Below are positions 191 through 20,471 of a DNA stretch of 20,471 nucleotides, in pieces. The translations under genes were made by a program, and so were the position numbers. The notes below the pieces were generated by a model that was not told the origin of the DNA, searched no databases, and saw only the letters and a program-made list of their open reading frames with translations. Source of the DNA: a virus. The stretch's first letter is position 1. Each line of letters starts with the position of its first letter. The DNA is taken from positions 1 through 20,471 of IMG/VR virus record IMGVR_UViG_3300030329_004632; one strand, written 5' to 3'.

Positions 191-481
191 ATGGAAATAA
201 AGGATTTAGCTATACCTGGACTCACCATGGTTTTTGCTGCTGGTGTATCGTTTGCGTCATTTGAGTCTGCTGCCAAGGATGTAGAAGACGTTGAAAAACG
301 AGTAAATGTTCTCGAATCCAATGCCAGCAAACAAGAGGTAGTCGATGTCAAGATCGAAGGTATTGAACAACGTCTTGATAAGATGGAAGATATTGTTCAG
401 AAAATGCTGGATATTCAACAGAAACAAGCGGTTAATGTCGCGCAAATCTGCCAAGCAACCAACGCAAATTGTAGTAACTAA
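191..481 (+). CDS. Small membrane protein with coiled coil, holin-like
   Basis: This 96-residue protein has one N-terminal hydrophobic segment (about residues 7-25, LAIPGLTMVFAAGVSFASF) followed by a charged heptad-rich region (about 27-80) that should form a coiled coil. The tail contains two cysteines. One membrane span plus a coiled coil is common among small phage lysis accessory proteins, but I do not recognise a named family. It is the first gene after the promoter at 132-161 and lies one base before the peptidase gene. It could be a holin, antiholin or spanin-like partner; the sequence alone does not decide. Confidence 0.75.
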   Translation: MEIKDLAIPGLTMVFAAGVSFASFESAAKDVEDVEKRVNVLESNASKQEVVDVKIEGIEQRLDKMEDIVQKMLDIQQKQAVNVAQICQATNANCSN

Positions 482-482
482 A

Positions 483-1070
483 ATGCGCCCTGATATCCTT
501 GATTACGCGGCCTCGCTTGGTCACACTGTTTTCGAATCTGGTGAGTACAACCTCAACATTATTGGTATTCGAAACTCGCAACACGAGCCCAACAGGTTTG
601 ATGATACGATTCACTGTGTCTACAAAGACGAAGACGGTGATTGGATTCAAAAGTCGTGGCCTTGCACTACGGAGCCGGGTAAGTACTGGCTTGAAAATCC
701 TACCAATGTCAAAGGTACCGCAGTGTTGGTTCCTGGTCAGTATCGCTCAGTTTGGAAGATTGATAAGCATCAAGGAAAGTACTACGCTCTGTGCCAGCGC
801 AACGGCACCGTAAAGGTATACCGTGATGACAATTTGGATGAAATCATTGATTGTGATCCTGAAACAATCACTGAGGGCTTTTATGGAATCAACATCCACA
901 AGGCCGGTGCTCATTCGACTCAAATCGATCGATGGTCCGCAGGATGCCAGGTGTTTGCAAACGAGTCCGATTTCGATGAGTTCATGGCTATTTGCGGCAA
1001 AGCTCGTGAGAAATGGGGCAACGCCTTTTCTTATACGTTGATTCTTGAGCACGAGAAAGGCTCTGATTGA
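483..1070 (+). CDS. YkuD-like L,D-peptidase/transpeptidase-fold protein, probable endolysin
   Basis: With the start at 483 the protein is 195 residues and opens MRPDILDYAASLGHTVFESG. The C-terminal half carries the arrangement of the L,D-transpeptidase (YkuD) active site: GINIH with His139, then thirteen residues, then SAGC with Cys155. This H-x13-SxGC spacing fits that fold, in which Cys is the nucleophile. The rest is weakly conserved, so the assignment rests on the motif and on context beside holin-like genes. The frame is open further upstream with an in-frame ATG at 435 inside the previous gene; 483 is preferred because it follows the upstream stop by one base and the extension looks like shadow sequence. 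Neither start has a strong Shine-Dalgarno. Its likely role is cutting peptidoglycan cross-links during lysis. Confidence 0.7.
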   Translation: MRPDILDYAASLGHTVFESGEYNLNIIGIRNSQHEPNRFDDTIHCVYKDEDGDWIQKSWPCTTEPGKYWLENPTNVKGTAVLVPGQYRSVWKIDKHQGKYYALCQRNGTVKVYRDDNLDEIIDCDPETITEGFYGINIHKAGAHSTQIDRWSAGCQVFANESDFDEFMAICGKAREKWGNAFSYTLILEHEKGSD

Positions 1071-1378
1071 TGGAGGCGCTGGTCGATTCACTATTAGCGG
1101 ACGGCCACCTCGGAGTTTTTGCTGCCTTCCTTGTCTATCAATTTGTAATGATGCAGAGGCGTCTGGATAAGCTTGTTGAAGGGTTCCAAGAACAACTTGA
1201 CGAGATACGAAAAGAATACGACCTTCGATCGGAAAAAATGAGAGAGCGATACGACAGAGTAATAAATGAGTATAGAAATAGAGAAGACACTCAGTCTAAA
1301 GACTTTTTAATTACTCGAACTAAAGTTCATAATGATATTGTGTCTAAGCTTGATAGAATTTTAGACAGAGAAAAATAG
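1070..1378 (+). CDS. BhlA/UviB-like holin candidate
   Basis: ATG at 1070 overlaps the TGA of the peptidase gene by one base (TGATG), so the two are probably translationally coupled. The 102-residue product has a hydrophobic segment at about residues 12-29 (HLGVFAAFLVYQFVMMQ) and then a long, highly charged coiled coil (about 30-100). One N-terminal span followed by a charged coil resembles the BhlA/UviB bacteriocin-holin type. Placement right after the endolysin-like gene supports a holin role. The family call rests on architecture rather than on specific residues. Confidence 0.65.
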   Translation: MEALVDSLLADGHLGVFAAFLVYQFVMMQRRLDKLVEGFQEQLDEIRKEYDLRSEKMRERYDRVINEYRNREDTQSKDFLITRTKVHNDIVSKLDRILDREK

Positions 1379-1384
1379 ATTGAA

Positions 1385-2035
1385 ATGAACTGCGTTGTTG
1401 GATCAGATACAGACTGTGAACTTAAGGTTGGTTCGTCGATTCGTATTTACGATGAAGAGCCAGCCGAAAAGGAGGCCAAACCCGTGGCAAACGAAACTAA
1501 AACAGAAAAACCAGCCCCTGCACCTGCTCCTGTAGAGCAACCAGCCCCTGCGCCTGCACCTGAACCAGCGCCTGAACCAGCCGTGGTAGAAACCGTTGCT
1601 GCACCGGCTGTGCCAGAACTCGTTGAATCAGTGGGCGTATCTCAAGACATCACGGCTGCCGCTGATGCTGCCAAGTCCCTCGGTGGCGACTATGCGCCCA
1701 TGGTTGCCATTGCGTTGGCAGGAATGGCTATTGCAGGCGGATCAAAAGCCTGGAGCTACTACCGTGATCGAGCAGAGCAAAAGCATGAACAAGAAATGCA
1801 GAAGCTCAAAATGGAAGCTCAGTCACAGGGCATGGACGGGCAACAGCCCCCACCTTGTCAGGCCGCAAACACAAAGATGCAGGCCGAAGTAGATGCATTG
1901 AAGTCTAAGCTCAGTGCAGTTGAAAAGAAAACATCGATGATCTCTGCTGACTTTGATGGTGAAGATGTCGAGCGTCAAATCAAGCGCATGAAAAAGCGCA
2001 TCGATGAGTTGTTTGAGATTACTGATCAAAAATGA
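1385..2035 (+). CDS. Pro/Ala-rich single-span membrane protein with coiled-coil tail
   Basis: The frame from ATG 1385 codes for 216 residues. Residues 1-35 include two cysteines; about 40-66 is a Pro-Ala-Glu repeat (EKPAPAPAPVEQPAPAPAPE); about 103-120 is hydrophobic and glycine-rich (APMVAIALAGMAIAGG), probably a membrane span; 126-213 is charged and heptad-like. I do not recognise the family. The layout of rigid linker, span and coil suggests a protein bridging a membrane and another layer, perhaps a spanin-like or virion protein. The ATG at 1385 has little ribosome binding sequence, while an in-frame GTG at 1484 (Val34) sits behind a perfect one, so the main product may be 183 residues. 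Confidence 0.7.
   Translation: MNCVVGSDTDCELKVGSSIRIYDEEPAEKEAKPVANETKTEKPAPAPAPVEQPAPAPAPEPAPEPAVVETVAAPAVPELVESVGVSQDITAAADAAKSLGGDYAPMVAIALAGMAIAGGSKAWSYYRDRAEQKHEQEMQKLKMEAQSQGMDGQQPPPCQAANTKMQAEVDALKSKLSAVEKKTSMISADFDGEDVERQIKRMKKRIDELFEITDQK
1471..1486 (+). promoter_or_regulatory. Strong internal ribosome binding site with in-frame GTG
   Basis: GGAGG at 1471-1475, preceded by four A residues, lies 8 bases before GTG at 1484-1486. The GTG is in frame with the membrane protein gene that starts at 1385. This site is far stronger than the one at 1385, so it either marks the true start or makes a second, shorter product lacking the first 33 residues. Confidence 0.5.
1511..1570 (+). repeat. 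Two imperfect 30 bp tandem repeats coding Pro-Ala
   Basis: CCAGCCCCTG occurs at 1511 and again at 1541, each opening a similar 30-base unit. The repeats encode the PAPAPAPVEQ and PAPAPAPEPA segments of the membrane protein linker. Shorter CCTGAACCAG units follow. Such repeats can change length by slippage or recombination. Confidence 0.7.
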
Positions 2036-2397
2036 TTGAACTCGCTTTAATTTTTTTCGGTACGTTTGTTGTTCTTCCTGCAGGGCTGAGTTTTGCGGTA
2101 GACGGTGACGGAAGTTCTCGAAAGAAGAAAAAAGCGCCCGTCGTGGAAGAGCCAGTAATCGAAGAGCCCATACCTGATCCTGAACCCATCCTTGTGGCAC
2201 GACTTAGGTCGACAAAAAAGACTGTCGTAATCGTCGTGCCAGAATGCTCTGATGAGGAATCCGAAACAAGGTTGCGTGCTGCCAGTCTTGATTACTTGGA
2301 AAAAGTTACCGGATTACCTGACGAGACTGTATTTGAAGTGAAGGATTGTGGCGACGAAGGTATGGTAGACATTCAAATCGTCGAAACGATAGAATAA
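2032..2397 (+). CDS. Small protein with N-terminal signal or membrane anchor
   Basis: The 121-residue product starts at an ATG overlapping the previous stop by four bases (ATGA). Residues 3-22 (ELALIFFGTFVVLPAGLSFA) are hydrophobic and could be a signal peptide or anchor. RKKKK and an acidic proline-rich stretch (VVEEPVIEEPIPDPEPI) follow, then a compact alpha/beta-like C-terminal half with two cysteines. No family is recognised. It is the last gene of the plus-strand cassette, so a cell-envelope role near lysis is plausible. The polybasic run right after the hydrophobic part fits an anchor better than a cleaved signal. Confidence 0.65.
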   Translation: MIELALIFFGTFVVLPAGLSFAVDGDGSSRKKKKAPVVEEPVIEEPIPDPEPILVARLRSTKKTVVIVVPECSDEESETRLRAASLDYLEKVTGLPDETVFEVKDCGDEGMVDIQIVETIE

Positions 2398-2403
2398 GTA
2401 AAT

Positions 2404-2481
2404 CTGCACCCCCCACCCGGTAGGAATCGCCCATGCTCACGTCCCGAGTATGGGAACAAGCGATGTGGGTGGGGGGTGCAG
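2404..2481. terminator. Long two-part hairpin between convergent operons
   Basis: CTGCACCCCCCACCC (2404-2418) pairs perfectly over 15 bases with 2467-2481. Inside, CCCATGCTC (2431-2439) faces GAGTATGGG (2447-2455), a 9-base stem with one G-U pair. The element fills most of the 92-base gap between two convergent genes, so a two-way terminator is the simplest reading. Neither side has a long T-run, so it is not a textbook intrinsic terminator. Confidence 0.6.
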
Positions 2482-2489
2482 AGGGACGT

Positions 2490-3092
2490 TTAGACTTTCT
2501 TTGCTGGTGCGACACCTTGAGTCGGTGCGATTGCATCATTAAGCATGTCCAAAACCTTCATAAGACCTTCTGGGGGTCCATCATCGCGAGCGACGACCTT
2601 CACGTCGTACTTGGCGCTGTTGTCGCTCTTACGGCTATTCTCGCTGTGGTTAGCCACAGAGCCGTGAACAGTAACGTCACAGCTAAATAGACCCGCGTTG
2701 TACTTTGCGTGCGCCGTAAGCTCTGCTTTCGTGTCAGATGTCGTTTTGGCTGAAGTCGATGATTTCACTTCCATGGTGAAACGAACTTCTGCTTCTTTGA
2801 CCGACAAGCTTGGCGTGTTGATGATGGCGAGCAGTGGGACTTGGAGGTCCACCTTCTCCATCGTTGTTGTGCCATCAGCAGCCTGAACAGGCTTGTTGAA
2901 AGCAAAGTCAACGGTGCGTGCCGTAAGGTTGCCCTTTCCATCGTCGTTAAGACCAACGTCATTAATAAAGTCACTGGAAGCTTTAGCCAGCAGTGTCTGA
3001 GCACTACACGCGGCCTTGAGTGGGCCTCCAATAAGTTGGTCCATGGGAAGACCACCGAACTGGTCTGACATCTTTACGAGTTGATCTGGCAC
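2490..3092 (-). CDS. DUF2589 family protein
   Basis: This 200-residue protein carries the features I associate with DUF2589: an opening SDQFGGLPMDQLIGGPLKAAC block (residues 9-29), a central segment with KVDLQVPLLAIINTPSLSVKEAEVRFTMEV (about 80-109), and a closing block containing NSAKYDVKV and PPEGLMKVLDML (about 162-185). The family has no established function that I know of. Translation probably starts at GTG 3092, since AGGAG lies 6 bases upstream; an ATG seven codons in has no such site. It follows a second, shorter DUF2589-like gene closely, suggesting that the two products act as a pair. It is the last gene of this minus-strand operon, ending at the hairpin. Confidence 0.75.
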   Translation of the reverse strand: MPDQLVKMSDQFGGLPMDQLIGGPLKAACSAQTLLAKASSDFINDVGLNDDGKGNLTARTVDFAFNKPVQAADGTTTMEKVDLQVPLLAIINTPSLSVKEAEVRFTMEVKSSTSAKTTSDTKAELTAHAKYNAGLFSCDVTVHGSVANHSENSRKSDNSAKYDVKVVARDDGPPEGLMKVLDMLNDAIAPTQGVAPAKKV

Positions 3093-3101
3093 CGTTTACT
3101 C

Positions 3102-3596
3102 CTATGGGATCAGCTTGATTAGCTGGTCATCGATTCTTGCATAACCCTCTGGAGGCTCGCTGCCCTTGAAGATCAACTTGAGTTTAGCAGCATTGTTCTC
3201 TTTTTTGAACCATGATGGCGTATTGGCACATGGCCGAACCATCAGCTTGCCTTTTTTCTTGTCCGCAGTGAGGCCAGATATTTCAACAGACATTTCGACT
3301 TCGAGCGTATCCACACGAAGACTTTGGCCAGTCGTGAGGGACTGGAGCGGCACCGGAATTCTTTTTTGTACCAGTACTCCATCTTCCCATGTTGGGAGTT
3401 CCATGACGACCATACGAGGTGCATATATGTGTCTTCCGTCGTCATCCGTAATGGGTTCACCTTTTTCATTGAGTTTCAACTCCCAAAACTCTTGATTGGT
3501 GATTGAGTCAAGTTCATGACGTTCAGCAATATCCGTTGCCGCTATAACTGCTGATTGAATCGAATGTACGATGTCGTCTAAAGAATGATCAGCCAT
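3102..3596 (-). CDS. DUF2589-like partner protein
   Basis: The 164-residue product begins MADHSLDDIVHSIQSAVIAA and has the same overall plan as the next gene's DUF2589 protein: an N-terminal helix, VPLQSLTTGQSLRVDTLEVEMSVEI in the middle (about 80-106) and a terminal PPEGYARIDDQLIKLIP. It looks like the shorter paralogue that often accompanies DUF2589. It lacks the long Ser/Thr-rich insert of its neighbour. The start overlaps the FmdB-type gene by 8 bases, and its stop lies 9 bases before the next start, so the three are probably one transcript. Function unknown. Confidence 0.65.
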   Translation of the reverse strand: MADHSLDDIVHSIQSAVIAATDIAERHELDSITNQEFWELKLNEKGEPITDDDGRHIYAPRMVVMELPTWEDGVLVQKRIPVPLQSLTTGQSLRVDTLEVEMSVEISGLTADKKKGKLMVRPCANTPSWFKKENNAAKLKLIFKGSEPPEGYARIDDQLIKLIP

Positions 3597-3777
3597 CTTT
3601 TTTCAAACCATAGTTGTCTCTTGCCCAACCTGAACCTTTAAGTGAAAAGTTTGTTGCGCTTATTTTTCGTGTCATTTCACAAAGACACTGCAAGCAAGTG
3701 GGGCTCGGATCCCCAAATGCTTGCAGTACTTCTTTCTTCGCACCACAGTCTTCACAAACGTATTGGTACAGCGGCAT
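3589..3777 (-). CDS. FmdB-type zinc-ribbon protein
   Basis: The 62-residue product matches the FmdB zinc-ribbon family: MPLYQYVCEDCGAKKEVLQ, a Cys-x2-Cys pair at 8 and 11, a second cysteine cluster CLQCLC at about 28-33, then the typical RKISATNFSLKGSGWARDNYG tail (about 37-57). The family is thought to bind zinc and has been linked to regulation, but its molecular role is not established. No clear ribbosome binding site is seen; the gene lies 5 bases after the preceding stop and may rely on coupling. A phage copy placed in a DUF2589 operon is unusual. Confidence 0.8.
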   Translation of the reverse strand: MPLYQYVCEDCGAKKEVLQAFGDPSPTCLQCLCEMTRKISATNFSLKGSGWARDNYGLKKDG

Positions 3778-3782
3778 CGTTA

Positions 3783-4436
3783 TCAGTCGTTAAACACGAC
3801 GGGTTCAGGCTCTGGCTCGCCCGTCACCGCATCAGTTTTGACTGTAGCGGTTGTATTTGAGTTATCGACGAGAGCGGTAACCAGTTGCTCAATCATCCCA
3901 GCCAAACGTGAATCGTCGGTTTGACGGTTCGTCAATGCATCCAAAACTTCTTGGGGCACTGGGTTTGTTTGCACGTTGACAGTGGTAGTGACTGGTACAC
4001 CGTTGCGATAGCTCAAGTCTTCTGAGTTGTCAGCATCAACAAATTTAACGACCAAGTAGACACGCTCAATGTTGTCAGCATCATGATCGATTTTTGTTTC
4101 ATAGTTCAGAAGTTTCCAGTTTCCGTTCGGCTGACTGTTGCGAATGGTTTTAGACATTCCAGCTATTGTAGCGTTGAGCATATTCGCCCATGTTGGCTCA
4201 GTCACTTTGCCTTGAAGATTGTGCAAAGGCCATGAAGTATCTCCAAGTCGTGTACGAAATCCTTCGCAGTTTAGTGCTTCGTCATCGCCAATCTTTTGCT
4301 CTTCAAAAACCTCATTGAGAACACGCAACAAAAGCGACGTTTGGTTAATCTTTGGAATTTCGCCTTCTTTTGTTTGTGGCTTTGCTCGTTCACCAAATGG
4401 ATTCTTAGCTTGCTTCGCTTCTTCAAATAGACTCAT
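3783..4436 (-). CDS. Unknown protein with acidic C-terminal tail
   Basis: The 217-residue product starts behind AAAGGAG six bases upstream. The N-terminal third is polar with basic patches, the centre contains NGNWKLLNYETKIDHDADNIERVYLVVKF-like beta-rich sequence, and the last dozen residues are acidic (GEPEPEPVVFND). I do not recognise the family. An acidic, flexible tail next to recT recalls the tails of single-strand DNA-binding proteins, but the tail lacks the usual DDDIPF ending and no OB-fold signature was identified. It lies 12 bases after the HNH gene stop and upstream of the FmdB-type gene, in the same operon. Confidence 0.6.
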   Translation of the reverse strand: MSLFEEAKQAKNPFGERAKPQTKEGEIPKINQTSLLLRVLNEVFEEQKIGDDEALNCEGFRTRLGDTSWPLHNLQGKVTEPTWANMLNATIAGMSKTIRNSQPNGNWKLLNYETKIDHDADNIERVYLVVKFVDADNSEDLSYRNGVPVTTTVNVQTNPVPQEVLDALTNRQTDDSRLAGMIEQLVTALVDNSNTTATVKTDAVTGEPEPEPVVFND

Positions 4437-4447
4437 TACGTTCTCCT

Positions 4448-4669
4448 TTACTTACGTGAACGATTTGTTTTTTTACTTTCAACTCGCAGATTTTTCTTTG
4501 AGTTGTTTTCAGGGTTTCCATCTTTGTGATGGACATCTTTGCCGTCGCCTTTCCTAACTCGTTTCAGCATAGTCATGATTCGTCGAGCACGATTACGACC
4601 AGCACGCCTTTTCTTTTGTTCAGGCTTACTGTGGTACGTTTTGTACTCTTTCTTGTAATCACGAGCCAT
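4448..4669 (-). CDS. Small HNH-motif protein
   Basis: This 73-residue, very basic protein has the HNH core DVHHKDGNPENNSKKNLRV (about residues 45-63), with His47-His48 and the Asn-rich loop expected for an HNH nuclease. The rest is a lysine/arginine-rich N-terminus and a short basic tail. At this size it is a minimal HNH domain, like small phage HNH proteins that nick or cut DNA; the usual last metal-binding residue is not obvious. AAGGAG lies four bases before the ATG, directly after the recT stop. It may act with RecT and the exonuclease, or be a remnant homing enzyme. Confidence 0.7.
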   Translation of the reverse strand: MARDYKKEYKTYHSKPEQKKRRAGRNRARRIMTMLKRVRKGDGKDVHHKDGNPENNSKKNLRVESKKTNRSRK

Positions 4670-4677
4670 GCTTCTCC

Positions 4678-5496
4678 TTAGTCTTCGATAAGTGTTTCTT
4701 CTTTATCCGTTTGTTGAACAAGTTCATCCAACTGATCAGACAAAACATTCATAGTATTCACTTCATGTACTTCACTAACGTCGACCACATTGAGTTCTTC
4801 AGTAGATGCATCTTGCATACCATCGTGCTCGTAGGCGCTCGTAGTGGTGTCGTCCATTGATACGATGCCGCGAGCAAACGCATATCGAAGCCCAGTCTTG
4901 AGGGCCATTTCAATCGGCCACTGACCCCATGGTGATTGGTTTTTGTTGCGCTTATACGAGTCCGAGTTGGCTCGACGCTTCTCGATGTCGGCTTTGCGAA
5001 TTACGACGAAGTCTTTGCTTCCGTCTTTGTAGTGAGCAACAACGTATACAGCTACCAGAGTGTCCCAGGATTGCTCCGCGCTAAGGTCTGGAACATGCTC
5101 CAGGCTTGGCTCAGTTCCTTCTATGACGTGAAACGTATCGCTTTCAAACACCGCCTTGGTGCGAAGACGAACACCACTTCGAGCAGCGAGCTTTGAAAAG
5201 CCCCGATGCGATACTTGCCATTGCAGACTCTTTCCGCGAGGCAAAAGGTATACGTCTGGCAGTGGCCCACCGGGCATAAGTCCCGTCATGGCGGACAAGG
5301 CGACCGCTTGCGCTACCGATGCCGGGTCACAACCATACAATCGGTCGTTAGTTTGAGCAGCCTGACGGAATGCCAGTGCGACTCGTCCTGCAGCCTTTGC
5401 TCCTTCTTCCGTACCTGCCATTGCTTGGAGGAAGTCAGTTGCTTTAGATTCGACAACGTTGCGAAAGTGATGTGCTGGGTGAAGAGCGTTGCTCAT
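4678..5496 (-). CDS. recT: RecT-family single-strand annealing protein
   Basis: The 272-residue product has RecT features: DPASVAQAVALSAMTGLMPGG-type sequence (about 57-78), the LPRGKSLQWQVSHRGFSKLAARSG-type core (about 85-108), and the PWGQWPIEMALKTGLRYAFA region (about 189-208). RecT coats single-stranded DNA and anneals complementary strands, working with a 5'-3' exonuclease. The C-terminus is acidic and divergent. AGGAG lies seven bases before the ATG. It overlaps the YqaJ exonuclease gene by 4 bases (ATGA), the classic exonuclease/annealase pair. It is slightly shorter or similar in length to usual RecT proteins, with no sign of damage. Confidence 0.9.
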   Translation of the reverse strand: MSNALHPAHHFRNVVESKATDFLQAMAGTEEGAKAAGRVALAFRQAAQTNDRLYGCDPASVAQAVALSAMTGLMPGGPLPDVYLLPRGKSLQWQVSHRGFSKLAARSGVRLRTKAVFESDTFHVIEGTEPSLEHVPDLSAEQSWDTLVAVYVVAHYKDGSKDFVVIRKADIEKRRANSDSYKRNKNQSPWGQWPIEMALKTGLRYAFARGIVSMDDTTTSAYEHDGMQDASTEELNVVDVSEVHEVNTMNVLSDQLDELVQQTDKEETLIED

Positions 5497-6407
5497 TTGG
5501 ATTCTCCTGTGTATTGAAATCTGAATGTTCTTGTTGGTTCGCCAAGCTTAACGTAACTCTTGGCAAGTTCTGGGTGATCAGCCTCGAATGCAGTCCGATC
5601 GAATCGGCTACGTGGCTTGCTCTGTGACCACGTTGCTACACCACTGATACCATAAGCGGTGCCTATTTCTTCTTTGATTTTGTTTTCAAGCAATCTTTTT
5701 TTATCATCAAGCTCGGCGCATTGTGCGCGAACTTGTCTCAATTGTTGGGCAAGATCAAGGTGCGATTCTGATGGCTCAATAAACTCTTTTGATTCTTGCT
5801 CAAACAGTTTTGCCAATGAGCGAGAGCAAGACGTTGAGCCGTCAACCTCTGGAGGTGTACCGCCTCGAATGTGACGGTCATACCACTCCCTGACATAGTC
5901 AATCATTTTGCTTTCGACCTTGGAGTCCCGATGAATGATGAATGATCGATACTCATCGTTCATGGTAGCAAAGGCGGCCAAGTCACAACGATCGTCATCG
6001 GTCACTGCCATCTGCCAAATGCACTGAGCAGCGTAGTAGGGGGGAACAGCGTTGCCTCCTGAAATCCCCCACTTGTGATCAAACTTGCGAGTAGACTTGA
6101 TTTCAAGCAACCACTTTCCTTGCTCAGAATCTACAAAGAAATCAGGACGAGCGTGCATCCAAGACTCTGGGCCGATCAATGGTTCGGCCTCGTATTCTGG
6201 TCCCTTTTTGATCATCACGTTGTTTAGGTGGGCATAGTGCGCGCCAATGGCTGGTTCGAGGATGTGTCCTCGTTGAGTAGCTGCTGATGATGAACTTTCG
6301 GTAAGACCATGGGCTCTGGCCCAGACGTCCCACGGGCTGCTCCAGGGTGACAATCCTAAGATTGCACCCACGCTACTGCTTCCGATAGTTGGTAGATTGT
6401 CGTTCAT
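5493..6407 (-). CDS. YqaJ-type phage recombination exonuclease
   Basis: The 304-residue product shows the YqaJ/lambda-exonuclease-like nuclease fold: IGSSSVGAILGLSPWSSPWDVW (residues 8-29), RGHILEP with Glu51, HARPDFFV with Asp89, LLEIKST with Glu102 and Lys104, and YYAAQ with Gln128. These are the expected metal-binding and catalytic residues of this PD-(D/E)xK nuclease. The C-terminal half has a coiled segment. The enzyme would resect double-stranded DNA ends to give single strands for RecT, encoded just downstream with a 4-base overlap. It is the first gene of the leftward operon and lies next to the operator region at 6427-6466, which probably controls it. Confidence 0.9.
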   Translation of the reverse strand: MNDNLPTIGSSSVGAILGLSPWSSPWDVWARAHGLTESSSSAATQRGHILEPAIGAHYAHLNNVMIKKGPEYEAEPLIGPESWMHARPDFFVDSEQGKWLLEIKSTRKFDHKWGISGGNAVPPYYAAQCIWQMAVTDDDRCDLAAFATMNDEYRSFIIHRDSKVESKMIDYVREWYDRHIRGGTPPEVDGSTSCSRSLAKLFEQESKEFIEPSESHLDLAQQLRQVRAQCAELDDKKRLLENKIKEEIGTAYGISGVATWSQSKPRSRFDRTAFEADHPELAKSYVKLGEPTRTFRFQYTGESK

Positions 6408-17919: not shown

Positions 17920-18077
17920 GACTGCTCCTTCGCCTTGCGTCGTTTCTCAAGTTCCTCTTTTGCAGCACATCCAATCCACACCGCCATGTTGATGGTGTTC
18001 TCCTTGCGAAAGTGTGGTGCGGTATCAACTGCGTGCTGGAGTTGTTCGTCTGTCCACTTGCTCATTGGTTCAAGCAT
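17916..18077 (-). CDS. Small helical protein (53 residues)
   Basis: The product MLEPMSKWTDEQLQHAVDTA... ends EELEKRRKAKEQS. It has an amphipathic helical pattern and a basic tail. AGGAG is five bases before ATG 18077, which overlaps the upstream gene's end by 16 bases. The stop overlaps the next ATG. Function unknown. Confidence 0.65.
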   Translation of the reverse strand: MLEPMSKWTDEQLQHAVDTAPHFRKENTINMAVWIGCAAKEELEKRRKAKEQS

Positions 18078-18259
18078 GATTGCTCCTGAATGACCTTCAG
18101 GTCACATGATTGGCAAATAATGTTGCGCTTGTGGTCGAAGGGCTTGACCAGCCATTCGGTGCCGAGTGGGCTGTACCAGGGTTCAATGATGACACCGGTC
18201 TTGGTGCCGTAGTGCTTGGTTTGGACGACGACTACGTCGCCGGGTTTGATGTTGTTCAT
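18062..18259 (-). CDS. Small SH3/KOW-like domain protein
   Basis: A 65-residue product, MNNIKPGDVVVVQTKHYGTK..., opens with a KPGDVVVV...GTKTGVI pattern typical of small SH3-like or KOW barrels that bind nucleic acid or proteins. The C-terminus has Cys residues (ICQSC). AGGAG lies six bases before ATG 18259. The frame is open to 18487 upstream but that part is non-coding shadow. Role unknown. Confidence 0.6.
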   Translation of the reverse strand: MNNIKPGDVVVVQTKHYGTKTGVIIEPWYSPLGTEWLVKPFDHKRNIICQSCDLKVIQEQSCLNQ

Positions 18260-18564
18260 GATGTGCTCCTGTTGTTTGAAATGTTGCCGATGGGTGGTAC
18301 TGCCCCACCTTGCAGGGCTAATCCCTGCTGCCTGATCCGTTATTCCCGTTGCCGGGTTTGGCGTGAACGAGCGACCTTGGCTGGGAGGTCTTCCCAGTTT
18401 GACTGACCAGATACAGGTGACGAGTCTGTCTGGTTCTGAATAGCCCCGGAGGTGGTCACCCTCTGCGATAGCTATCTCCAAGCGCATTACTTTTATGCTT
18501 CATCGACATATGTAAAAGAGTAGCGGTTTTGATTAGCAGACCGCAAACTGCTCCCTCTCCCGGA
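18260..18564. other. 305-base structured region between the SH3-like gene and ardC
   Basis: It carries hairpins GGTGG/CCACC (18293-18309), GCAGGG/CCCTGC (18312-18328), CCCG/CGGG (18345-18356), CTGGGA/TCCCAG (18381-18397) and ACCAGA/TCTGGT (18406-18434). No strong gene lies here. On the minus strand it follows ardC and leads into the SH3-like gene, so it may be a long 5' leader or a small RNA. No known riboswitch pattern was recognised. Confidence 0.5.
18340..18459 (-). CDS. Possible 39-residue protein in the ardC-SH3 gap
   Basis: A frame from GTG 18459 reads VTTSGAIQNQTDSSPVSGQS... and ends RSRQTRQRE. It looks somewhat coding-like, but the GTG has GAGG directly before it without normal spacing, and the hairpins of the region overlap it. 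A leader peptide or chance frame are both possible. Confidence 0.22.
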   Translation of the reverse strand: MTTSGAIQNQTDSSPVSGQSNWEDLPAKVARSRQTRQRE

Positions 18565-19515
18565 TTACTTGGCGGCCATGCTGCGCTCGGCCTCTTCGGC
18601 CTTGGCGAGCACCAGCTTGGCAGCCTTCTCGGCCTTGGATGCCGCAGACACGATGGCCTTGGGGTCATCCTTGAGTACCTTGAGCCAGTGGCTGAGGTAT
18701 GATGCGTGGTCGGCGCGTGGCTCGTCGGGCTGGCTGATGCCAGCATCGCAGCAGAGGAACGCTGCACCAAGCTCGGCGACCAACTCCTCGAAGGCGTAGG
18801 CATCCTTGTAGCTGCCCTTGCGCTCCTTCTGGAAGCGGTTCAGCCGGGACTTGTGGCCCGTGCTGTGTACGGCCTCGTGGAAGGCGGTCGAGAAGTACTC
18901 GGCCTCAGTCTCGAACTGCTCGAACAGTGGCAACTGAATGTGGTCGTCCGCTGGGCGGTAGAACGCTGAGTCACCGCCGTGGCGAATCTCAACTTCGGTA
19001 GCCCATGCGTCGAGGATGACCTTGGCGTCCTCGAAGTTGTCGCCAGCCTGAGAGCCATCGTGGTCCTCGACCGTAGGCTGTGGCCCCGGAGCATGCACGC
19101 TGCCCTCGGCCCAATCAATCTGGCAGGCGTTGAACACCGTGTACAGCTTGAGCCGTGCATAGGTCACGGGCTCACCATTCGCGTCAAGCTGAGGCTTGCC
19201 GGTCTTGGCGTCCTTGTAGGGCAGGAACAGCCACTTCACAATCTTGGTGCCTTTCTCGCCCTTGCGAACTTGGCCGTCCTTGGCCTGAGCACCTCTGTAG
19301 GTGTGCCACTCGTGAGACCAGAAGCCCTGCTCTTGAGCGGAACCCCAGAGCAACAGGACGTTGATGCCGTTGTAGGACTTGCCGCTGCCTCCGCTGACGG
19401 GGCGAACGAGTGCGCCTCCCAGCTTCTTCCAGCCGCAGCGCCATGCTGGCGTGCCCGCTTCGATGGAAGCAATGAGAGTGTCGGCAATGACTTGGTATGG
19501 GTTGAACTTTGCCAT
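18565..19515 (-). CDS. ardC: ArdC-family antirestriction protein
   Basis: The 316-residue product has the ArdC plan. The N-terminal single-strand DNA-binding domain has IEAGTPAWRCGWK (18-30), the SYNGINVLLLW region (47-57) and GEKGTKIVKW (86-95). The C-terminal zincin-like metallopeptidase domain has AFHEAVHSTGH (211-221), with zinc ligands His213 and His217, catalytic Glu214 and a downstream glutamate in EELVAELG (243-250). ArdC proteins protect incoming single-stranded plasmid or phage DNA from restriction. The gene is visibly richer in G and C than its neighbours (one sampled 60-base line is 63% GC, against 43% near 1.2 kb), suggesting transfer. CAGGAG lies upstream of ATG and a strong promoter at 19548-19577. 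Confidence 0.88.
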   Translation of the reverse strand: MAKFNPYQVIADTLIASIEAGTPAWRCGWKKLGGALVRPVSGGSGKSYNGINVLLLWGSAQEQGFWSHEWHTYRGAQAKDGQVRKGEKGTKIVKWLFLPYKDAKTGKPQLDANGEPVTYARLKLYTVFNACQIDWAEGSVHAPGPQPTVEDHDGSQAGDNFEDAKVILDAWATEVEIRHGGDSAFYRPADDHIQLPLFEQFETEAEYFSTAFHEAVHSTGHKSRLNRFQKERKGSYKDAYAFEELVAELGAAFLCCDAGISQPDEPRADHASYLSHWLKVLKDDPKAIVSAASKAEKAAKLVLAKAEEAERSMAAK

Positions 19516-19547
19516 GATGAAGAACTCCTGTTGAATGTTCTGAAACG

Positions 19548-19577
19548 GTTATACACCTGTTTGGTTTCGACTGTCAA
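19548..19577 (-). promoter_or_regulatory. Strong sigma-70-type promoter for ardC
   Basis: On the minus strand TTGACA (19572-19577) and TATAAC (19548-19553) are 18 bp apart; only one of twelve box positions differs from consensus. The start codon lies about 30 bases downstream. It supports independent early expression of ardC. Confidence 0.72.
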
Positions 19578-19652
19578 GAAAGTTTCTGTCTGTCCACGTC
19601 ATCAATGGTATGAACAGGTCTGTCACTAAGGGGAAAGGGAAGGGGGCAGCCG

Positions 19653-19955
19653 CTATTGCGGCCACCACCCAAAGCCCTGCTCATTGTCAGGGATACCCTG
19701 CGCTCGGCGTTGCTTAGCCTCACGCTCGGCTTGCTCAGCAGCCTTAGCTGCGTCACACTCTGCAAGCAGTTCGTCAGCGCCCTCTACAATGTGGCTCTGA
19801 ACAAGCGCCGCGATACTGGCGGCATCCGATACCATGGGAACCTCGACAACAATCAAGTCGCCCCACAGTAGAAAACTGGTCCTCCGCTCTCTGGCAAGTG
19901 CGTCACGAGCGGACTGCGCTTGCTCACGAGTGGGTGCAACGGCAAGCGTTTGCAT
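19653..19955 (-). CDS. Unknown protein with unclear start
   Basis: From ATG 19955 the product is 100 residues, MQTLAVAPTREQAQSARDAL..., with a hydrophobic strand (FLLWGDLIVVEVPM), then a long Ala/Glu-rich helix (CDAAKAAEQAEREAKQRRAQ) and the tail GFGWWPQ. The ATG has only a weak binding site. The same frame stays open for 26 more codons with coding-like sequence (VIITSFFLVQHWDGNG), and GGAGG at 20003-20007 lies five bases before ATC 19997. So the true start may be non-AUG. It is GC-rich like ardC. Function unknown. Confidence 0.6.
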   Translation of the reverse strand: MQTLAVAPTREQAQSARDALARERRTSFLLWGDLIVVEVPMVSDAASIAALVQSHIVEGADELLAECDAAKAAEQAEREAKQRRAQGIPDNEQGFGWWPQ

Positions 19956-20035
19956 GCCATTGCCATCCCAGTGTTGGACAAGGAAGAAAGAAGTGATGAT
20001 GACCTCCGGGGTTTGTGGTTGTTTGATTAGCTCTC

Positions 20036-20055
20036 ACCCTACAGAACGATAGGGT
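20036..20055. other. Small hairpin before the unclear start
   Basis: ACCCTA and TAGGGT (20036-20041 and 20050-20055) form a perfect 6-base stem with an 8-base loop. On the minus strand AGGGT overlaps a GGGTGAGAG purine tract, so it could mask a ribosome binding site. Confidence 0.35.
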
Positions 20056-20080
20056 TTGAAACCGTGGACATGGGTCACCG

Positions 20081-20471
20081 CTACGCCCGACTAAGGACGC
20101 AGCGGTTCAGGTTGGTTTCTTTGACCCCGGCGTACTCGCCGTGGCCTTTGATGGTGGCGACCAGTGTGTAGGTCTCACCCTCAGTCACGTCGTCGCCGTC
20201 GTTGGTCCGCGCTCCACCGGATGCGAACCACTTGAACACGTTCCCGGCCTCGTCAGTCATGGAGACCAACTCAGTGGTGCCCCAGTCATTCTCGAAGGTT
20301 CGAGTGTTCACCACAGTGACGGTCAGTGCCTCGTGAGCCGTGGCACCCTTGCGCTTGTCCGCTGCACTCAGCTTGCGGCCAATCTTGTCACCGGCTGCAC
20401 CGAAGTGGGTGCTGGTGGCCTTCAGGGCCTCGCGCTGCTTGCGGCGGGTCTCACCCTTGACGGCTCGGTTG
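20081..20471 (-). CDS. Partial gene, C-terminal part of a phage or plasmid protein
   Basis: The frame is open from the window edge to the stop at 20081, giving about 130 residues. The visible part has a basic start (KGETRRKQREALKATSTHFG), then TRTFENDWGTTELVSMTDEAGNVFKWFASGG, an acidic loop and TYTLVATIKGHGEYAGVKETNLNRC. The last part has a beta-rich, OB-fold-like feel (a compact barrel with a GEYAGV loop), resembling small phage or plasmid accessory proteins that may bind nucleic acid. The codons are GC-rich, matching ardC. The true start lies outside the window. Confidence 0.65.
   Translation of the reverse strand, partial: NRAVKGETRRKQREALKATSTHFGAAGDKIGRKLSAADKRKGATAHEALTVTVVNTRTFENDWGTTELVSMTDEAGNVFKWFASGGARTNDGDDVTEGETYTLVATIKGHGEYAGVKETNLNRCVLSRA

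What the first reader, a model, noticed from the sequence alone, without database searches (positions are those of the whole stretch)
2490..4436. DUF2589 pair with FmdB zinc ribbon and an unknown acid-tailed protein in a phage operon
Two DUF2589-like genes, one FmdB-type zinc-ribbon gene and an unknown 217-residue gene follow recT in one leftward operon with small gaps and overlaps. DUF2589 has no established function that I know of. Finding the long and short forms together, in a phage and next to a recombination module, makes this the best candidate for an undescribed system. They could form a complex that modifies or protects the cell or the phage, but the role is unknown.
Basis: partly seen in the sequence, partly recalled or inferred. 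Interest (0 to 1): 0.68.

Follow-up and report, generated by a model that had tools for sequence, protein, structure and literature searches.

The report
Paired DUF2589 genes beside a lysin
Two related proteins of unknown function, always encoded side by side in this phage family and in many bacteria, turn out to sit next to enzymes that cut the cell wall (or other toxin-like enzymes), which suggests an undescribed helper pair for getting such enzymes to work or out of the cell.

Summary
In detail: two DUF2589 genes (A 2490-3092, B 3102-3596), a zinc ribbon (3589-3777) and an unfamilied acid-tailed gene U (3783-4436) follow recT leftward. The proposed four-protein system does not. In about 110 distinct viral A loci, U always stays on recT's strand (61/61). 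The zinc ribbon occurs in 30/57 well-flanked loci and in no bacterial locus. A and B are a constant unit: 57/57 viral loci and 78/80 bacterial loci across six or more phyla. The recurring third partner is a cell-wall-lysis gene. In this window it is an overlooked endolysin-like Cys-His protein (483-1070, +), convergent to A-B. In a rearranged phage group it lies on the same strand as B-A, with recE/recT/U on the other strand. In Flavobacteriia it is close to A on the same strand. Other bacteria carry unrelated peptidoglycan hydrolases there (52/80 loci within 3 kb), or an astacin, a YopT-like protease or a colicin DNase. Nearly all lack export signals. Best reading: A+B is a heteromeric accessory of swappable lytic or toxic enzymes; here it serves the lysin, probably by helping it reach or breach the envelope. 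The linkage is shown; the mechanism is inferred.

The parts
2490..3092 (-). DUF2589 type A, 200 aa (GTG start). Core: N-terminal helix, beta strands, C-terminal helix, plus a Ser/Thr-rich insertion with an amphipathic beta hairpin (about residues 111-160)
   Evidence: Pfam PF11655 E 4e-44; conserved columns in A3; weak AF2 model pLDDT 57; S/T and beta-moment profile
3102..3596 (-). DUF2589 type B, 164 aa: same element order as A without the insertion
   Evidence: Pfam PF11655 E 2e-14; AF2 model pLDDT 81; no PDB fold match at E<=0.001; adjacent to A in 57/57 distinct phage loci with full flanks and 78/80 bacterial loci
483..1070 (+). Endolysin-like gene 'lys', 195 aa from the ATG at 483 (the longer ORF opens at 345). 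Cys-His motif H139-x12-S152-A-G-C155, spacing as in YkuD L,D-transpeptidases; no export signal
   Evidence: phrog_33083 endolysin E 6e-15, phrog_3000 E 1.5e-35; H139, S152, G154, C155 at least 95% conserved; same-strand relatives near DUF2589 A in 8 Flavobacteriia-type loci; arrangement-2 phage version has an N-terminal PG_binding_1 domain
2403..2482 (.). Perfect 16-bp inverted repeat between the convergent A-B and lys transcription units, terminator-like
   Evidence: the repeat finder; no T-run, so the terminator scan did not list it
191..481 (+). Small protein with N-terminal hydrophobic segment and coiled coil, next to lys; possible holin or spanin
   Evidence: KD maximum 1.75 over 19 residues; weak PHROG matches only; inference
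1067..1378 (+). Small protein with N-terminal hydrophobic segment and coiled coil, overlapping the end of lys; possible holin or spanin
   Evidence: KD maximum 1.62 over 19 residues; Rz-like spanin E 0.03; inference
1385..2035 (+). Acidic/proline-rich protein with one hydrophobic segment and coiled coil
   Evidence: Rz-like spanin E 0.003, weak
2032..2397 (+). Small N-terminal-membrane-anchor protein, last gene of the rightward lys unit
   Evidence: KD maximum 2.17 over 19 residues
3589..3777 (-). FmdB-type zinc ribbon Z, 62 aa; present in 30/57 distinct phage loci and in no bacterial locus, so an optional neighbour
   Evidence: Pfam Zn_ribbon_8
3783..4436 (-). U, 217 aa, acidic C-terminal tail; assigned to the recombination module, not to the DUF2589 pair
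   Evidence: no family; same strand as recT in 61/61 loci, within 1.2 kb in 56; alignment A9
4448..4669 (-). Small HNH-like protein, optional
   Evidence: HNH_3 E 1e-6, phrog_4590 E 3e-17
4678..5496 (-). RecT annealing protein
   Evidence: PF03837 E 6e-29; phrog_148 E 9e-39
5493..6407 (-). YqaJ/RecE-like exonuclease
   Evidence: PF09588 E 3e-17; phrog_434 E 2e-63

Best explanation
DUF2589 A and B are two paralogous subunits that work together, probably as a hetero-oligomer. They serve as a soluble accessory for a separately encoded lytic or toxic enzyme that lacks its own export signal. In this phage the partner is the endolysin-like Cys-His protein at 483-1070. The pair most likely acts late, helping the lysin reach or disrupt the cell envelope, possibly through A's Ser/Thr-rich amphipathic beta hairpin inserting into membrane. 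In bacteria the same pair, with a conserved protein S of about 91 aa, is combined with many alternative enzymes. SHOWN: constant A-B pairing; recurrent linkage to peptidoglycan hydrolases of at least seven unrelated kinds and to other toxin-type enzymes; cargo without signal sequences; A-B separates from recombination genes but stays with lys in a rearranged phage group. INFERRED: physical A-B complex, contact with the enzyme, membrane action, late expression, role of S.
For: A-B adjacency: 57/57 distinct phage loci with full flanks, 78/80 bacterial loci. Genome-wide searches usually find an adjacent pair and nothing else, e.g. 7/7 positive genomes of one family have exactly two neighbouring copies. 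Linkage to lytic enzymes: 52/80 bacterial loci have a peptidoglycan-hydrolase-like gene within 3 kb, 48 on the same strand, often under 100 bp away; 7 more have only an astacin or C58 protease. Pfam tally of near genes against far genes in the same loci: GH19 6, GH108 4, SLT 3, pesticin 2, GH24 2, astacin 4, C58 3 against none listed. A colicin-type DNase at L185. Six gammaproteobacterial genomes found separately: three show pesticin-like genes by eye beside the DUF2589 region. lys lies within 3.5 kb in 43/57 phage loci (25 convergent, 18 same strand) and on A's strand near it in all 8 Flavobacteriia-type loci. The A tree puts phages beside marine gammaproteobacteria and away from Flavobacteriia, so the lys-DUF2589 pairing arose or was re-formed on separate branches. 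In arrangement 2 B-A lies among late structural-looking genes, flanked by small membrane proteins and the PG-binding lysin. lys is endolysin-like. Cargo and A/B lack N-terminal signals; only the MltF type has one.
Against: Guilt by association only; no interface or activity was tested. 12/57 phage loci (Z-B-A arrangement) have no lys within their flanks. In arrangement 1, including this window, A-B is transcribed toward lys from the recombination operon, which is usually early. About a quarter of bacterial loci have no recognised enzyme nearby. The phage lys region already has small membrane proteins that could be holin and spanin, so a pore from A-B is not needed. The AF2 model of A is poor (pLDDT 57) and the B fold matches nothing solved. 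The cargo seeds were drawn from the same loci, so the 52/80 figure is not an unbiased rate; the independent control is.
Confidence: 0.5

Rival explanations
1. A and B are virion or late structural proteins (for example part of a tail or cell-contact structure) that carry or position a virion-associated peptidoglycan hydrolase; the bacterial clusters are domesticated relatives.
For: In arrangement-2 phages B-A follows structural-looking genes on the late strand; A and B are very conserved (about 90%) while U and Z drift (about 56-64%); beta-rich predicted fold.
Against: Bacterial loci lack phage structural genes around the pair; arrangement 1 puts the pair in the recombination operon; no match to PHROG structural families or solved virion folds.
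Confidence: 0.17
2. The pair and S form a toxin-antitoxin or bacteriocin-type module: the neighbouring enzyme is the toxin and A/B/S hold it inactive or provide immunity.
For: Neighbour enzymes are typical antibacterial or host-acting toxins (pesticin, colicin DNase, muramidases, C58, astacin); S is present in 79 bacterial or plasmid loci and missing from this phage group, where lysis is wanted.
Against: One conserved core with many unrelated enzymes does not fit specific inhibition; A and B stay constant while the enzyme changes.
Confidence: 0.15
3. One reading: A, B, zinc ribbon and U act together, linked to recombination, to modify or protect phage or cell.
For: Conserved order U-Z-B-A after recT in arrangement-1 phages; Z-B-A without recT in 12 loci keeps Z near the pair.
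Against: U is on recT's strand in 61/61 loci; in arrangement 2 recE/recT/U are on the strand opposite to B-A; Z is absent from 27/57 phage loci and all bacterial loci; no defence-family match.
Confidence: 0.06
4. DUF2589 pairs are unrelated in function to the neighbouring lytic enzymes; both are mobile accessory genes that collect in the same islands.
For: Patchy distribution (7/199 and 19/297 genomes); several loci on plasmids; about a quarter of loci lack an enzyme.
Against: Enzymes are usually co-directional and often under 100 bp away; the same lys family is paired with the pair in phages and Flavobacteriia on separate tree branches.
Confidence: 0.12

Closest known systems
Pfam DUF2589 (PF11655)
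   Same: A and B both score well above the family cut-off
   Different: The family has no function. Its organisation as A/B pairs with S and swappable enzymes was not found described: the term occurs in 1 paper of the 5.39-million library, for Archaeoglobus AF0414-AF0417 (PMC3949148)
Phage lysis cassettes and type 10 secretion (holin-endolysin-spanin used for protein release, e.g. PMC10847048, PMC10109510)
   Same: A signal-less phage-type peptidoglycan hydrolase beside accessory genes, in phages and, domesticated, in bacteria
   Different: A and B have no transmembrane helices and no similarity to holins or spanins; the enzyme family is swapped freely, including proteases and a nuclease
Polymorphic toxin systems (PMC3482391)
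   Same: Constant part with interchangeable toxic enzymes such as C58 protease, metallopeptidase, colicin-type nuclease, lysozymes
   Different: The enzyme is a separate gene, not a C-terminal tip; no known trafficking domain found; immunity gene not identified
YkuD-type L,D-transpeptidases and phrog_33083/phrog_3000 endolysin-like proteins of crAss-like and P2-like phages
   Same: lys shares the phrog families, 48-51% identity with homologues in those phages and the H-x12-S-x-G-C spacing
   Different: No Pfam match, Ala in place of the usual His before Gly-Cys; fold not modelled

Membership tests
DUF2589 (PF11655) | Profile score above 23 bits over the whole domain | tested here: met
   A 151 bits, B 54 bits, full profile length
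FmdB-type zinc ribbon (Zn_ribbon_8) | Profile score above 34.4 bits, two CxxC pairs | tested here: met
   40.2 bits, CEDC and CLQC
Phage lysis cassette / T10SS | Peptidoglycan hydrolase without signal sequence | tested here: inconclusive
   lys matches an endolysin PHROG, has a PG_binding_1-fused relative and no N-terminal signal; hydrolase activity not tested
Phage lysis cassette / T10SS | A and/or B act as holin with transmembrane helices | tested here: not met
   Maximum 19-residue hydropathy 0.98 (A) and 0.94 (B)
Phage lysis cassette / T10SS | Separate holin and spanin genes beside the hydrolase | tested here: inconclusive
   Small membrane proteins at 191-481, 1067-1378, 1385-2035, 2032-2397; only weak spanin matches
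YkuD L,D-transpeptidase (lys) | Conserved catalytic H...S-H-G-C motif | tested here: inconclusive
   H139, S152, G154, C155 conserved with right spacing, but Ala replaces the motif His and Pfam gives no match
Beta pore-forming toxin (A) | Amphipathic Ser/Thr-flanked membrane hairpin in a solved pore-forming fold | tested here: inconclusive
   Hairpin-like profile at 111-160, but AF2 model poor and no PDB sequence match
Polymorphic toxin system | Variable toxin tip fused to a conserved N-terminal carrier | tested here: not met
   Enzymes are separate ORFs beside A/B
Known anti-phage defence systems | Match to a PADLOC-DB model | tested here: not met
   None for A, B, U, S, lys; the zinc ribbon only E 0.006 to Cas8b

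The most novel reading that the evidence does not exclude
DUF2589 A+B(+S) is the core of an undescribed, widely distributed carrier or release machine for interchangeable lytic and toxic enzymes (lysozymes, muramidases, proteases, nucleases) in bacteria, and phages use a reduced A+B form to deploy their endolysin.
Probability: 0.3. Interest if true: 0.85.

Novelty: categorically new. Interest (0 to 1): 0.62.

Why it matters
DUF2589 is a function-less family found here in at least six bacterial phyla and in a recurrent uncultured phage group, yet it is mentioned in one paper of the library searched. Showing that it is a near-obligate pair linked to a swappable lytic or toxic enzyme turns it into a testable module: either a new way for soluble enzymes to cross the envelope, or a new kind of lysis regulator shared by phages and bacteria.

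Tried and rejected
Four-protein complex with U and zinc ribbon: rejected on linkage. Defence system: no PADLOC match. Known fold: no PDB sequence match for A at E<=10; for B only three chance-level matches (E 0.8 or more). Foldseek with the B model gave no PDB hit at E<=0.001 and one BFVD hit (unnamed viral protein A0A516L4Y6, E 6e-8, probably a homologue). The A model (pLDDT 57) was too poor to search with. U against PDB: only designed helical proteins, chance. Cultured phages: no DUF2589 pair like this one; only an unannotated fecal scaffold, MT839761. A phylum survey of Actinobacteria failed on the handle format and was not repeated. Short N-terminal-only DUF2589 matches (97-115 aa frames) in some Bacteroidota were seen and not resolved. 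Cargo labels in the tree script were partly assigned by hand; the verified count is the one.

Full report
Observation. The four minus-strand genes are present as described, downstream of YqaJ-exonuclease and RecT genes. A and B are both DUF2589; Z is an FmdB-type zinc ribbon; U matches no family. The record is a 35,167-base uncultured virus contig from IMG/VR with a 10-N gap just beyond the window. The order E-T-(H)-U-(Z)-B-A recurs in more than 100 viral loci. A and B are far more conserved (median about 90% identity) than U (56%) or Z (64%).

The pair is the unit. Homologues of A at 45-55% identity were fetched from 80 bacterial genomes (Proteobacteria, Thermodesulfobacteriota, Bacteroidota, Bacillota, Actinomycetota, Verrucomicrobiota and others). 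An iterated profile finds a B-type DUF2589 gene on the same strand close to A in 78 of 80 (the exceptions are L204 and L250). Surveys of whole genomes give 7/199 positive genomes in one gammaproteobacterial family, each with exactly two adjacent copies. In Bacteroidota 19/297 are positive, several with only one member recognised by Pfam, beside a diverged B-like gene seen by eye. The usual bacterial order is B-A-S, S being an uncharacterised protein of about 91 aa found in 79 bacterial or plasmid loci and in no arrangement-1 or -2 phage locus.

What travels with the pair. In the phages there are three arrangements. Arrangement 1, including this window: E-T-(H)-U-(Z)-B-A leftward with lys convergent 0.5-1.9 kb away. 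Arrangement 2: B-A-lys on one strand, E-T-U on the other. Arrangement 3: Z-B-A with neither lys nor recT near. Among 57 distinct A loci with at least 3.5 kb on both sides, B is on the same strand in 57, lys is within 3.5 kb in 43 (25 opposite, 18 same strand), Z in 30. U is on recT's strand in all 61 loci that have both. So U belongs to the recombination module, Z is optional, and the pair keeps company with lys more than with recT. No FmdB gene is found beside bacterial pairs.

The lysin. The plus-strand gene at 483-1070 was not in the finding. It matches an endolysin PHROG (E 6e-15) and phrog_3000. It has homologues in crAss-like, Bacteroides and Pseudoalteromonas phages at 48-51% identity, and carries a conserved H-x12-S-A-G-C motif. 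From general knowledge of the YkuD family, this has the spacing of the L,D-transpeptidase motif with one substitution. In arrangement-2 phages the homologue has an N-terminal PG_binding_1 domain. In eight Flavobacteriia-type loci its homologue lies on A's strand, in most within about 30 bases. The A tree groups the phages as one clade (95/89) next to Vibrio, Agarivorans and Shewanella. Flavobacteriia sit across a supported split, so lys is combined with the pair on separate branches.

Bacterial partners. Within 3 kb of the pair, 52 of 80 bacterial loci have a peptidoglycan-hydrolase-like gene: GH19 20, GH108 10, lys 8, and SLT/MltF-type, pesticin, GH24, muramidase or PGBD-muramidase 2-3 each. 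48 are on the same strand; seven further loci have only an astacin-like or YopT-like (C58) protease. One has a colicin-type DNase. Pfam tallies of genes near (150) and far (150) from the pair in the same loci show these families only near. The seeds for the 52/80 count came from the same loci, so searches are the cleaner control; in the non-redundant set the same seeds gave 32 near hits and 1 far. The hydrolases, proteases and DNase have no N-terminal hydrophobic segment, except the MltF type; A, B and S have no transmembrane segment.

Structure. B is modelled with fair confidence (pLDDT 81): long N-terminal helix, beta strands, C-terminal helix. It matches no solved structure at E<=0.001. A has the same element order plus an insertion (residues about 111-160) with Ser/Thr-rich flanks (up to 52%) and a strongly amphipathic beta pattern. 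Its model is poor. That insertion resembles membrane hairpins of beta pore formers, but this is a lead, not a test.

Interpretation. The evidence supports an undescribed module: a constant A-B pair with an interchangeable lytic or toxic enzyme that lacks its own export route. In the phage the natural role is to assist the endolysin at lysis. How it does so (membrane perforation, escort, storage, timing) is inferred. Rivals are a virion-associated hydrolase holder, a toxin-immunity arrangement, or co-location in islands without functional link. The weak points are the twelve phage loci without lys nearby, the recombination-operon location of the pair in this window, and the lack of any biochemical test.

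Literature. 'DUF2589' occurs in one paper of the library, as AF0414-AF0417 of Archaeoglobus, up-regulated on lactate (PMC3949148); 'PF11655' in none. Subscription papers and preprints were not searchable, so novelty is provisional.

Noticed in passing
window 18565-19515 (-): ArdC-like anti-restriction protein (phrog_7245, E 1.5e-79), a phage counter-defence candidate.
   Followed up: partly
genome 18000-25000 (window 18000-20471 and L173 1-7000): GC rises from about 0.48 to 0.57-0.62 and falls back at about 25 kb, with a 10-N scaffold gap at 20472-20481; a foreign insert or a mis-joined scaffold.
   Followed up: no
window 2403-2482: Perfect 16-bp inverted repeat (TCTGCACCCCCCACCC / GGGTGGGGGGTGCAGA) with a 48-base loop between the convergent operons; no T-run.
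   Followed up: partly
L206:3173-3562 and relatives in 14 non-redundant loci: A small secreted-type protein family (about 130 aa, N-terminal signal-like segment) recurs near bacterial DUF2589 pairs; function unknown.
   Followed up: partly
L422-L425: Short frames (97-115 aa) in Bacteroidota genomes match only the first 40-50 positions of DUF2589, possibly N-terminal pieces or decayed copies.
   Followed up: no
L194:8289-8615, L394:2117-2500 and similar: A small protein of about 108-140 aa resembling Mu Mor-type activators by eye sits next to DUF2589 pairs in Vibrio and other gammaproteobacteria, suggesting phage-like regulation; the resemblance was not tested.
   Followed up: no
L287 (194.6-kb viral contig) and L332: Two viral contigs carry the bacterial-type A, S and B set, unlike the window's phage group.
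   Followed up: no
L248, L253 and L178: TolC-like or HlyD/peptidase-ABC exporter genes lie beside some bacterial DUF2589 pairs, hinting at type I secretion there.
   Followed up: no
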